Shown here: positions 24,122 through 30,512 of the stretch, in pieces
Position numbering within the stretch: the stretch's first letter is position 1
Layout: each line of letters opens with the position of its first letter
Assembly: GCA_016282685.1 (NCBI GenBank)
Contig: JAEELM010000016.1
Span: 1-64,000 of the forward strand
Source of the DNA: Elusimicrobiaceae bacterium
Lineage (GTDB): Bacteria > Elusimicrobiota > Elusimicrobia > Elusimicrobiales > Elusimicrobiaceae
Direction of reading: 5' to 3'
Length of the DNA stretch: 64,000 bases
Notes under the pieces: generated by a model
Database searches by the model: none
What the model saw: only the letters and a program-made list of their open reading frames with translations
Told to the model about the DNA's origin: nothing
Made by a program: the position numbers and the translations under genes

Positions 24122-27100
24122 TTATTGCGCCGGAGACGGTGTCGGTCCTTCCGTCGGACCTTCTCCGGGGGTATCTCCTCCCCGGTGAAAGAATCTCTTA
24201 AATCGCTCCCATACTTTTTGGATTTCTTGGCGCACCCCCGTCACAAGAGAAGAATTGCGCATCATCCGCGGAGTAAGCAGCAAACTGGTCAGTAACATAC
24301 CGCTTGCATAGAGTAAATTAGCCGGCACACCCAGCCCAGCCATTCCTGCCATATAACCTGCTGGAATAGCAACCGCGCCACCTACTGACATGGTTAATGC
24401 CATAAGAGAAGAAAGCTCTCGGTCTCGTTTTTCTTTTTCATACCGTCCCGTAATATAATTATACATTTGTGTGAAGAAGTTCCCTATCCCTATAGTGGCA
24501 ATTGTAGCACCGGCAATGGTTTGCGGTACACTGCCACCGGCGGTAACCATCATTGCCGTTCCGATTGCAGAAAGGGTAGAAAAGCCTATATACATGGAAG
24601 CTGGGCTCATCTCACGGTTGCTGAGGTCTCCTCCCGCCAGACGGCCGGCAATCATTGGTAGGTATAAGGTACTGGCAACCAAAAAGAGGGCTAATTCACC
24701 TTGCGGGATAAGATCTTTCATAATACCGGTAAATGAACTGGAAAGTACAAACTCGTGTACACACGCAGCCGACATGGCAGCCAATAACGAAGGCACCCCC
24801 GGGGAACGGAACATTGTCCACATGTTACCCAGGTTGTTTTCTTGCATTTTAATTGCATCAGACAAGCGCTCCATAATTTGCTTGGCTTCTTCCGGTGTTT
24901 TCTTGTATTCTTGGATCAATTTCTTTTCCACTGCAACCCACACTTTTTCCTTAAAATCTTCATAAAGAATTTTTTTGAGGGCTTTTTTATCTTTGGAAGG
25001 ATCAGAATCTATTTTGATATGTGCAAAAGCCAAGGCATCCAGAGACTCTTTAAACGAATACGCAACATCACGAATGTCTTGTTGGTTAAGGTCTTCTTTT
25101 GCCAAAGTCTTCGACCCCGTATCAATCATATTGATTACGATTTGCCGGCTTTCGTTCAATTTTTTAACGGTGTAGGCATCACGCAGTTTAGAACCCAATA
25201 TTCTGAACATGGTGTAAGTAGAGTATAAAGCATAAATCGGGAAAGCGATGGAAAAGTCAAACCCTAAATTTATGCCCGTTGTAAATTTAACTGCGTAGTT
25301 AATAACAAGTGCCATAGCCAAAAATGTTAATGTTCCTACATTCTTATAAGTAAAGCCCTTGTTATAACCGGCCAACGTGCTGAGAGAAATTTTTGGCTTT
25401 TGAAGAAAAATTTCCTTAAACCGCTGGGCAATTAATTTAAAACCTTCCGGTTTTCCCTCTGTCAATTCTTCTACAACTCCTTCAGTCTTTTCCTCTGATG
25501 ACAGAACCACCACTCCACGATTGCTTCTAATTAATGGATTACTTACCAACTGCTTTATAATTCCGGCTCCGGCCATGCAGATCATCCCCGCCATAAATAG
25601 TCCTTTCTGAACGGGGCCCAATGTCATTTGTTCCACAAACCCGTAAAACCCACCGGCAGTTGCCAATAGCCCAGATAGCGCAGATATTCCCATCGCGGTT
25701 ACCAGCAAATTCTTTTCCCCATACTTCTTAAGCGCCGGAGTCATTAAAGAAGCAAAACCCGGCATGACATAGTTGATAGAAAACATCAAAGCATTGGCAG
25801 TGGCATCACTGACTCCCAAAGGATCTCTTACAATAGATCCTACTTTCCCCAAACTAATGTTGGATAAGGCAGCATCACGCGCCACGAGAGACACTCTGTC
25901 TTCCGTTGGATTTATTATAAATTCCAATTGGGTTCCTTTCTCTAAGAAAGGTTCCAATTTCATAAATTGTTGGAGCTGATGTTTCGGGAAACGAACGTAA
26001 TATTCTTCCGGAAGGGGAACAATTTCATCAGAACCTTCGAATTTTAATCCAATTTCCCCATTTTCGCGTAAGAAGAATTGAGCGTTTAGAATAAGATTTT
26101 CACTCTGTGTGCCCGGCAACCCCAACGATTCCAACCAGTGCGAAAACGCCTGTTTTGCCTCTCTGCGCCACAAAGCAAGACTTAACTGTACATCTAATTC
26201 CACCGGTAATTCTTCCCCGGTTTTTTCATCATAAAGTTTCTTTTTTACCCGTTCCAATGATGCATTCGGATCGTGCTCCAATTTCAAGCTCAAACTCACG
26301 CCGGCTTTTTGTGCCGCACGCACGAGCGCACCTACGTCATTGGGAGAAATGGACATATAAAAGTGTTCCATATCAACGGGCTTTTCCCCATTTTCGACAC
26401 GTTTTACAATATATCCGTTTTCAAAACGGGGTTCTTCTTGGAATATTATTTCGTCATAATCTCCTTTAAAAGAGGAGCCTATGCTAAACGTAATGGGAAG
26501 AGCTCTCTTTTCTCCGGTCTTGCTTACCACACTTACCGGGAAAGAAGTACGTTCCCCTTTTTTGCCGGATAAAAACTGTTTAAACCGTTGTAATACGGTA
26601 GCCGATTCTTCTTGTGCGGGAACAACCTGCTCCGCAACGGCCTGCTCAACTGTAACCGGCGCTGTTACAACCGGTTCCGTTACAGCCGGAGTTATTTCCT
26701 CTGTCAGCGAAGAAGGTGGCAAAGCTAACACCAATGGTTCAACCGGCCCACCGGCTTTGCCGGCCACACCACGCTTAGGCGCGGAAGAAGGCACTACCCG
26801 AAATTCTTCCAATTCTCCCAGATTGCGCCAAGTAAATGTAGCAGAAGTTGAGAAATCACCGACTAAACCGGCAAACGGCCCATAACGAAGTAAACCTTTT
26901 TGGAAAGAAGGAGAAGCTACAGAAGCATCCGGAGCTTGATTCGTAAGCTCTGTTATTTGGTTGCGGAATGTTTCCCAGGAAATGTCTTGCGCATCTTCTT
27001 CAAACAACGATTTTAATTTACTTTCAGCCTCCTTCCCCATACGTTGTAAACTGCGGCCCAATAAAAGTTTTGCAGGGCTTTCAAAAATAGTTCCTTTGGC

Positions 27101-27712
27101 TGCTTTGTAAAAATCAAACAAAGAAGGAATATCTTTTTCATTCCCCATTAACCCCAAGGCAGCGGCATCAGCAAATAAACCAAAAACTTTTTCTTCCGGG
27201 CTATTTTCAGTTTTCAGCACCCGTTGCGAGAAAGATTCCAACGTTTCCCCTTTGCCGACCATGGAAAAAATCTGAGGAGCTTGCGCCAACTGTTCTTGGT
27301 AAAAACCAATTGCTTGCCCGCGTTCAAAACCGGGTAGGCGGCGTTTCAAAGCAAGGCCTACCATTTGGTTACGCATTAAAGCAAGGGAATAAGAACTTTG
27401 CGGAAGTTTTAGAATCTGAGCACCTAAACCAAGAAACTGATTATTTTGAAATTGAGAAGAGATAAGTTGAATTTCTGTCGGAACACCGGATTGCACAGTA
27501 AAGGAGGGAATACGTGCTAAATAGGCGGCTGTAATTGTTCCGTTAAACACGTGTCTTGAAAGTGCTGCCGGCAAAAAAAGACTTTGCCGAGGAGCTCCTT
27601 GGGCTGTAGCGCGAACGACAGATTCTCCCAACGGAGTTAGCTGCGCAAAAGCCGGCGCAGCCGTATTTACAAGCAGACAAGCACTTAATACGAGCGATAA
27701 AAATTGTTTCAT
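24122..27712 (-). CDS. 1196-residue protein: exported N-terminal region fused to MFS-like membrane domain
   Basis: A very large protein of unknown function. Residues 1-23 form a signal peptide (..TAAPAFA). Residues about 25-330 are helical with no known motif. A Val/Thr/Pro/Glu-rich linker lies near 335-370. Residues about 380-620 are a mixed alpha/beta hydrophilic domain. From about 636 to 1154 there are roughly ten to twelve membrane helices resembling the major facilitator fold, split by charged stretches near 724-795 and 847-966. The C-terminal tail is Gly/Pro-rich. A GGAG site precedes the ATG, and two tandem AGACCTAG dyads lie upstream. It may be a lineage-specific transporter-like protein. 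Confidence 0.7.
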   Translation of the reverse strand: MKQFLSLVLSACLLVNTAAPAFAQLTPLGESVVRATAQGAPRQSLFLPAALSRHVFNGTITAAYLARIPSFTVQSGVPTEIQLISSQFQNNQFLGLGAQILKLPQSSYSLALMRNQMVGLALKRRLPGFERGQAIGFYQEQLAQAPQIFSMVGKGETLESFSQRVLKTENSPEEKVFGLFADAAALGLMGNEKDIPSLFDFYKAAKGTIFESPAKLLLGRSLQRMGKEAESKLKSLFEEDAQDISWETFRNQITELTNQAPDASVASPSFQKGLLRYGPFAGLVGDFSTSATFTWRNLGELEEFRVVPSSAPKRGVAGKAGGPVEPLVLALPPSSLTEEITPAVTEPVVTAPVTVEQAVAEQVVPAQEESATVLQRFKQFLSGKKGERTSFPVSVVSKTGEKRALPITFSIGSSFKGDYDEIIFQEEPRFENGYIVKRVENGEKPVDMEHFYMSISPNDVGALVRAAQKAGVSLSLKLEHDPNASLERVKKKLYDEKTGEELPVELDVQLSLALWRREAKQAFSHWLESLGLPGTQSENLILNAQFFLRENGEIGLKFEGSDEIVPLPEEYYVRFPKHQLQQFMKLEPFLEKGTQLEFIINPTEDRVSLVARDAALSNISLGKVGSIVRDPLGVSDATANALMFSINYVMPGFASLMTPALKKYGEKNLLVTAMGISALSGLLATAGGFYGFVEQMTLGPVQKGLFMAGMICMAGAGIIKQLVSNPLIRSNRGVVVLSSEEKTEGVVEELTEGKPEGFKLIAQRFKEIFLQKPKISLSTLAGYNKGFTYKNVGTLTFLAMALVINYAVKFTTGINLGFDFSIAFPIYALYSTYTMFRILGSKLRDAYTVKKLNESRQIVINMIDTGSKTLAKEDLNQQDIRDVAYSFKESLDALAFAHIKIDSDPSKDKKALKKILYEDFKEKVWVAVEKKLIQEYKKTPEEAKQIMERLSDAIKMQENNLGNMWTMFRSPGVPSLLAAMSAACVHEFVLSSSFTGIMKDLIPQGELALFLVASTLYLPMIAGRLAGGDLSNREMSPASMYIGFSTLSAIGTAMMVTAGGSVPQTIAGATIATIGIGNFFTQMYNYITGRYEKEKRDRELSSLMALTMSVGGAVAIPAGYMAGMAGLGVPANLLYASGMLLTSLLLTPRMMRNSSLVTGVRQEIQKVWERFKRFFHRGGDTPGEGPTEGPTPSPAQ

Positions 27713-27757
27713 GGTATCTCCTTACCTCTATTGTGGCTTTTTTCAAACCATAAGAAA

Positions 27758-27797
27758 AGGGCCAAAAGACCTAGATAAACAGGGTTTTTAGACCTAG
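27758..27797 (-). promoter_or_regulatory. Tandem 17-bp AGACCTAG dyads upstream of the 1196-residue protein gene
   Basis: Two copies on the plus strand, AGGGCCAAAAGACCTAG (27758-27774) and AGGGTTTTTAGACCTAG (27781-27797), start exactly 23 bp apart. The proximal copy is about 46 bp from the ATG and abuts the likely -35 region (candidate minus-strand -10 CACAAT). The rest of the 209-base gap 27713-27921 holds only the coaD terminator. Confidence 0.6.
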
Positions 27798-30473: not shown

Positions 30474-30512
30474 AGGGTCTTTAGACCTATTGCAAATAAA
30501 AAAAAGACCTAT
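30474..30512 (-). promoter_or_regulatory. AGACCTA dyads upstream of the 30424 secreted-protein gene
   Basis: A full 17-bp copy AGGGTCTTTAGACCTAT at 30474-30490 starts 50 bp before the ATG. A second AGACCTAT at 30505-30512 is 22 bp further, but its left half is not conserved. The second copy is also one arm of an 11-bp inverted repeat (30502-30512 / 30520-30530) that could end transcription on the minus strand. Confidence 0.5.

What the first reader, a model, noticed from the sequence alone, without database searches (positions are those of the whole stretch)
24122..27712. 1196-residue fusion of an exported helical region and an MFS-like membrane domain
A signal peptide, about 300 helical residues, a repeat-like Pro/Val/Thr/Glu linker, a soluble domain and then ten to twelve membrane helices in one chain is an unusual architecture. 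I cannot name a family. It is one of the genes with tandem dyads upstream, tying it to the possible regulon.
Basis: partly seen in the sequence, partly recalled or inferred. Interest (0 to 1): 0.58.

Follow-up and report, generated by a model that had tools for sequence, protein, structure and literature searches.

The report
Exported-domain MFS protein missing its first helix
A gut bacterium of the phylum Elusimicrobiota makes a large, unusual membrane protein in which a sugar/drug-transporter-type membrane domain has lost its first membrane helix and carries about 600 residues of domains exported to the outer side of the inner membrane; related bacteria have swapped its membrane half for a different version at the same chromosomal position.

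Summary
Window 24122-27712 (-) is one 1196-residue gene: signal peptide, all-helical domain (76-300), disordered Pro/Val/Thr/Glu linker (301-384), tandem beta domain (385-606), then an MFS-fold membrane domain. No profile matches the whole chain; only MFS_1 is recognised (E 6e-9). The model's MFS part matches known MFS structures; the beta domain matches nothing in PDB or viral models.

New points. (1) The membrane domain has 11 helices: TM1 is reduced to two short helices, and charge distribution gives N-out/C-in, which agrees with the signal peptide. (2) The family is confined to Elusimicrobiaceae and in the genus lies between a PHP gene and coaD; 'missing' cases that I checked end at a contig end there. 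(3) It is mosaic: the N-domain tracks the species (SecA), while the beta+MFS part has been exchanged (AU p 3e-29). (4) A paralogue family has the same N-domain on an ordinary 12-TM MFS without the beta domain. (5) The tandem dyads upstream recur before exported ORFs genome-wide (41 sites vs 6 control), next to a sigma70-type promoter.

Best reading: a permease with its own periplasmic receptor domains. The architecture is well supported; the transport role is inferred. New variant of a known kind.

The parts
24122..27712 (-). whole gene, 1196 aa
   Evidence: homologues
27781..27796 (-). first dyad TAGGTCTAAAAACCCT
27758..27773 (-). second dyad TAGGTCTTTTGGCCCT
27730..27735 (-). -10-like hexamer CACAAT, 24 nt after the dyad; genome-wide the -10-like hexamer sits at about this offset
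27644..27712 (-). signal peptide, residues 1-23
   Evidence: sequence; conserved in all complete homologues
26813..27487 (-). N-terminal all-helical (HEAT-like) domain, residues 76-300
   Evidence: shared with paralogue families, hhalign E 2e-46
26561..26812 (-). disordered Pro/Val/Thr/Glu linker, residues 301-384; recombination breakpoint zone in an orthologue
26276..26560 (-). first beta5-alpha-beta domain, residues 385-479
25907..26251 (-). second beta5-alpha-beta domain, residues 488-602, with an inserted helix 514-529
25817..25894 (-). TM1 remnant, residues 607-632: two short helices with the conserved SLGK motif (K623)
24278..25807 (-). MFS membrane domain TM2-TM12, residues 636-1145
24797..25195 (-). 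cytoplasmic loop between TM6 and TM7, residues 840-972, four long helices
24125..24259 (-). cationic C-terminal tail, residues 1152-1196, predicted cytoplasmic

Best explanation
An inner-membrane permease of the MFS fold with its own periplasmic receptor. SHOWN by sequence and model: the signal peptide exports residues 24 to about 606 (a helical HEAT-like domain on a flexible tether, then a tandem beta domain next to the membrane); the chain then enters the membrane through 11 helices equivalent to MFS TM2-TM12; TM1 is reduced to two short helices, so an outside N-terminus and the normal MFS orientation of the other helices fit together. INFERRED: the helical domain binds a substrate or an envelope partner, the beta domain sits on the periplasmic mouth, and the MFS core, with invariant polar residues in TM5, 7, 8 and 10, moves or binds a ligand there. 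Expression is probably set, together with dozens of other exported proteins, by a factor that binds the tandem dyad beside the -35 region.
For: MFS membership: Pfam MFS_1 6e-9, above the cut-off; 28 of 40 homologues hit MFS_1; the 50 best Foldseek PDB matches are MFS proteins, target TM-scores about 0.45-0.72. Topology: over 40 aligned homologues the loops alternate strictly (summed K+R: 3.2 in, 0.2 out, 12.9 in, 0 out, 20.2 in, 0.7 out, 1.6 in, 0 out, 5.1 in, 0.5 out, 8.1 in), giving N-out/C-in with 11 helices. TM1-equivalent segments: best 19-residue hydropathy at most 1.03 in all 39, against 1.29-1.69 in 13 paralogues that keep TM1. Function: K790, N791, T794, E987, S991, Y1017, R1024, N1078, Q1082 and T1107 are invariant inside helices across sequences down to 25% identity; the TM7 Glu is shared with the 12-TM paralogue family. 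The beta domain always travels with this MFS type. Co-regulation.
Against: No transporter without TM1 is known to me, and TM1 lines the cavity and the gate in ordinary MFS members. Averaged over the membrane core, polar columns are not significantly more conserved than non-polar ones (permutation p 0.077). No substrate, enzyme or transport neighbour: the flanking genes are housekeeping. The beta domain has no fold match. Rapid evolution and cassette exchange are unusual for a nutrient permease.
Confidence: 0.45

Rival explanations
1. A pseudo-transporter: the MFS part lost transport when TM1 decayed and now serves as a membrane anchor or receptor for the periplasmic domains, for example as an envelope scaffold or ligand sensor.
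For: Loss of a core helix; the N-domain also occurs on chains without any MFS domain (653-aa paralogue; L184), so the exported part is the shared element; fast divergence of the locus (23-54% identity in the MFS part against 82-94% in SecA).
Against: The MFS C-half is the most conserved part of the chain, with 46 of 179 columns at 90% or more, and invariant charged/polar residues lie in the middle of cavity helices; an anchor needs neither.
Confidence: 0.37
2. A variable envelope component under diversifying selection (phage, host or rival pressure), whose membrane half is exchanged as a cassette and whose exact transport activity is secondary.
For: N-domain tree follows SecA, MFS tree does not: AU tests reject {window,L066} for MFS (p 3e-29), {L038,L061,L068} for MFS (p 1.3e-4) and {window,L038} for the N-domain (p 3e-6); L038 switches partner at the linker and back at the tail; contigs end inside this gene more often than expected (14 of 32 against 6.7; 4 of 11 against 0.4 in genomes of at most 10 contigs).
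Against: Only two main MFS types, both deeply conserved, not a spectrum of alleles; exchange could be old and neutral; contig ends may reflect low-complexity DNA rather than strain variation; an inner-membrane module is not an obvious phage or host target.
Confidence: 0.2
3. An ordinary 12-TM MFS protein with a cytoplasmic N-terminus; the signal peptide is not functional or acts as an extra anchor.
For: The paralogue family (own genome C15, 790 aa) has signal peptide plus 12 full helices whose charges point to N-in, so the combination exists in this genome.
Against: In the window protein and all 39 homologues tested there is no hydrophobic TM1 and parity demands N-out.
Confidence: 0.06
4. An artefact: two adjacent genes read as one, or a misassembly.
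For: None beyond the odd architecture.
Against: The same chain in many independently assembled genomes, at one syntenic position, and no internal stop.
Confidence: 0.01

Closest known systems
Major facilitator superfamily (Pfam PF07690 MFS_1; folds such as SV2A, FLVCR1/2, EfpA, Rv1410 homologue MHAS2168, AmpG)
   Same: Fold of the membrane domain, two-halves layout, charged central loop, positive-inside pattern of TM2-TM12
   Different: TM1 reduced to two short helices; N-terminus outside; about 580 exported residues in front; no known MFS subfamily profile matches the whole
Rv1410 and lipoprotein LprG of mycobacteria (PMC10576003)
   Same: MFS transporter that works with a periplasmic protein at its outer mouth
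   Different: Two separate proteins, full helix set (14 TM), LprG not known to be related; here the periplasmic part is in the same chain
MFSD1 and GLMP of lysosomes (PMC6819133)
   Same: MFS transporter dependent on a luminal (extracytoplasmic) accessory subunit
   Different: Separate, eukaryotic, glycosylated subunit; no sequence relation tested or claimed
12-TM paralogue family of the same genomes (own genome C15:29179-31548, 790 aa)
   Same: Homologous signal peptide, N-domain and linker (hhalign E 2e-46); MFS domain with the same TM7 Glu
   Different: TM1 intact, no beta domain

Membership tests
Major facilitator superfamily | Profile match to MFS_1 | tested here: met
   35.7 bits against cut-off 33.4, E 6e-9 over 983-1176; 28 of 40 homologues
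Major facilitator superfamily | MFS fold | tested here: met
   AlphaFold2 model; Foldseek top 50 PDB matches are MFS proteins, E 3e-6 to 1e-4
Major facilitator superfamily | 12 (or 14) transmembrane helices as two six-helix repeats | tested here: not met
   11 helices; TM1-equivalent 607-632 is two short helices with hydropathy at most 1.03 in 39 sequences
Major facilitator superfamily | N- and C-termini in the cytoplasm | tested here: not met
   Predicted only: signal peptide plus 11 helices and charge alternation give N-out, C-in; no experiment
Major facilitator superfamily | Motif A in the loop after TM2 | tested here: inconclusive
   TPxLKKYGEK is conserved at the right place but lacks the usual Asp and Arg
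Major facilitator superfamily | Transport activity | not testable with these tools
   needs experiment
Any described family with the full architecture | One profile covering exported helical domain, beta domain and MFS | tested here: not met
   Pfam, NCBIfam, PDB sequences
12-TM paralogue family (C15 type) | Shared N-domain followed directly by MFS with intact TM1 and no beta domain | tested here: not met
   N-domain met, TM1 and layout not met

The most novel reading that the evidence does not exclude
An MFS transporter whose topology was rebuilt by evolution: fusing a signal-peptide-exported receptor in front of an MFS domain put the N-terminus outside, and the conflict was settled by decay of TM1 into a short periplasmic or re-entrant element that keeps a conserved Lys (K623), giving a working 11-helix permease with built-in receptor; its beta+MFS cassette is exchanged between species at one fixed locus. 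The 12-TM paralogues would be the unsettled ancestral form.
Probability: 0.3. Interest if true: 0.75.

Novelty: new variant of a known kind. Interest (0 to 1): 0.55.

Why it matters
MFS is among the largest transporter superfamilies, and its 12-helix, N-in layout is treated as fixed. A natural, conserved family without TM1 and with an exported N-terminus would show that this layout can change, and how a soluble receptor can be fused to a secondary transporter from the outside. The paired paralogues in one genome (TM1 kept and TM1 lost, same N-domain) make the topological question directly testable in E. coli. The gene also gives a handle on a large set of exported proteins of gut Elusimicrobiota that have no known family and share one promoter type.

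Tried and rejected
First genome-contig scan with the single protein: nothing; an alignment was needed. PDB sequence searches with the protein and with the profile: nothing. Fold search of the beta domain in PDB and in viral models: no match below E 0.018, probabilities low. Idea that the hydrophobic stretch 171-189 is an extra membrane helix: rejected, it lies in a confident soluble helical domain and would break the charge parity. Idea that polar membrane positions are more conserved overall: not significant. Idea that the gene is absent from part of the genus: not safe, all four 'negative' genomes checked end at a contig end beside coaD, one with the start of an SP ORF there. Gene-neighbour function: only housekeeping neighbours. 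Pfam scan of ten regulon or neighbour exported proteins: no family. Literature: no paper found on this protein or on an MFS with exported N-terminus in the open library, which is not proof of absence. I did not fold the 12-TM paralogue: it came from the fetch from genomes, which is not on the structure tool's stated list.

Full report
WHAT IS THERE. The gene at 24122-27712 (-) encodes 1196 residues. The N-terminus MKQFLSLVLSACLLVNTAAPAFAQ is a signal peptide with an AxA cleavage site and no lipobox; complete homologues keep it. An AlphaFold2 model on a 40-sequence alignment (mean pLDDT 77, pTM 0.63) shows helices 79-296, no structure at 302-384, beta/alpha at 389-602 and long helices from 636. 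A separate model of 385-606 is confident (pLDDT 88, pTM 0.81) and shows two copies in tandem of a five-strand, helix, strand unit, the second with an inserted helix. Foldseek finds no convincing relative of this domain in PDB or in viral models. The full model matches MFS transporters (SV2A, FLVCR1/2, EfpA, an Rv1410 homologue, AmpG, GLUT). Pfam gives MFS_1 at 6e-9 and nothing else of weight; NCBIfam and PDB sequences give nothing.

TOPOLOGY. Hydropathy averaged over 40 homologues gives five helices before the long cytoplasmic loop (840-972) and six after it. Summed Lys+Arg per loop alternates strictly between high and near zero, and puts the loop after the first helix inside and the N-terminal part outside. 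That agrees with the signal peptide. The missing helix is TM1: the conserved loop TPxLKKYGEK, where MFS motif A belongs, follows the first membrane helix. In a paralogue family of the same genomes TM1 is intact (QRASLYLASFVMGLEVATPVIANFG, best 19-mer hydropathy 1.29-1.69 in 13 sequences), while the equivalent segment in the window family (RDASLTNVSLGKTMGPVV) never exceeds 1.03 in 39 sequences and holds a nearly invariant Lys (K623). In the model it forms two helices of 10 and 11 residues (607-616, 622-632). So the window family is an 11-helix MFS with an outside N-terminus. This is prediction, not experiment.

A PARADOX IN THE PARALOGUES. The paralogue family (own genome C15:29179-31548, 790 aa; alignment A4) has the same N-domain and linker (profile comparison over 392 columns, E 2e-46), no beta domain, and all 12 helices. 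Its charges place TM1's start inside, yet it starts with a signal peptide. Signal peptide plus 12 helices plus that charge pattern cannot all be right. The window family looks like a solved form of this conflict. The MFS domains of both families are related (C-half, E 1e-5), and share a Glu in TM7.

FAMILY AND DISTRIBUTION. 49 of 61 genomes of the genus have a match; in the phylum the family is seen in three genera of Elusimicrobiaceae and hardly elsewhere. Named loci are gut and rumen Elusimicrobiaceae, among them Candidatus Avelusimicrobium. In the genus the gene lies between a convergent PHP gene and coaD, with secA nearby. Negative genomes are not reliable: four of four checked have a contig end right at this place. 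Contigs end inside this gene more often than expected from contig number (14 of 32 against 6.7; 4 of 11 against 0.4 in the best assemblies); strain variation and hard-to-assemble linker DNA are both possible reasons. In other genera the beta+MFS unit sits in much longer chains: about 2000 aa; a 4510-aa frame with TPR, ankyrin and receiver-domain matches; and 3965 aa in G090, which by its 1,643,562-base contig I take to be E. minutum Pei191 (recalled size). The latter has two stretches of MFS-like helices and then chymotrypsin-like (Trypsin_2) domains.

MOSAIC EVOLUTION. Using SecA as the species yardstick, window and L066 are sisters (94%), as are L038, L061 and L068. The N-domain follows this. 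The MFS part does not: window groups with L038 (54%), while L066 has a different type (23%). AU tests reject {window,L066} for MFS (p 3e-29), {L038,L061,L068} for MFS (p 1.3e-4) and for the middle domain (p 2e-7), and {window,L038} for the N-domain (p 3e-6). Along L038, identity to L068 is 51-73% up to residue 300, then 15-50%, while identity to L042/L070 rises to 40-78% from about residue 420; the last residues are again L068-like. So a cassette from the linker to the tail was exchanged at a fixed locus. Some branches are long, so exact numbers depend on the model.

REGULATION. The motif TAGGTCTWWWRRMCC occurs 41 times in this genome with at most one mismatch, against 6 for the reversed pattern. 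About 25 of 30 inspected sites lie 35-105 nt before an ORF with a signal peptide, judged by eye. Aligned, 24 sites give TAGGTCTWWWGRCCC-TTGT with a -10-like hexamer most often 22-24 nt after the motif (14 of 24), so the dyad abuts the -35 region of a sigma70-type promoter. Nearly all complete orthologues carry it, usually as a large inverted repeat, and so does the G090 homologue. The exported proteins I scanned match no Pfam family.

MECHANISM. Best reading: permease with built-in periplasmic receptor. Shown: export signal, order of domains, MFS fold in the model, 11-helix pattern, conserved polar residues. Inferred: ligand capture by the exported domains, transport. The main rival is a pseudo-transporter anchor. 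The invariant charged residues inside TM5, 7 and 8 and the high conservation of the C-half favour a working cavity; the loss of TM1 and the non-significant overall test (p 0.077) argue for caution. Known systems that work alike, without shared origin shown, are Rv1410/LprG (PMC10576003) and MFSD1/GLMP (PMC6819133).

VERDICT. Observation confirmed, interpretation supported and extended. It is an MFS-superfamily protein by profile and fold but departs from two defining features of that superfamily (helix number, side of the N-terminus). New variant of a known kind.

Noticed in passing
window 27758-27796, 30474-30489 and 41 sites genome-wide: Dyad motif TAGGTCTWWWGRCCC-TTGT beside sigma70-type promoters of signal-peptide genes; looks like a regulon of exported proteins without known families, present up to the putative E. 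minutum genome.
   Followed up: partly
L153:7180-9549 (own genome C15) and alignment A4: Paralogues with signal peptide, the same N-domain and a full 12-TM MFS: export signal and charge pattern contradict each other.
   Followed up: partly
L054:766-12660 (G090, probably E. minutum): 3965-aa homologue with two MFS-like helix stretches followed by at least three chymotrypsin-like domains whose nucleophile looks like Cys (GFCGSP, GYCGSA, GFCGAP).
   Followed up: partly
L169:96-13625 (G096): 4510-aa frame with trypsin-like, TPR, ankyrin and receiver-domain matches ending in the beta+MFS unit; 5' end not in hand.
   Followed up: no
L036:11703-13661 (own genome C23:71699-73660) and L184:1088-3733: N-domain of this protein on chains with a hydrophilic C-terminus and no MFS domain: the N-domain is a mobile module.
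   Followed up: partly
L156:47-8380 and L157:579-4734 (own genome C2, C48): Tandem arrays of seven and three exported paralogues, some with the dyad motif upstream; no Pfam match for those scanned.
   Followed up: no
L194-L197 and contig ends in L004-L035: Contigs of many Elusimicrobiaceae MAGs end inside or beside this gene, also in assemblies of ten contigs or fewer.
   Followed up: partly
L047, L073 (G045, G051): Some orthologues carry about 550 further residues after the MFS domain; not examined.
   Followed up: no
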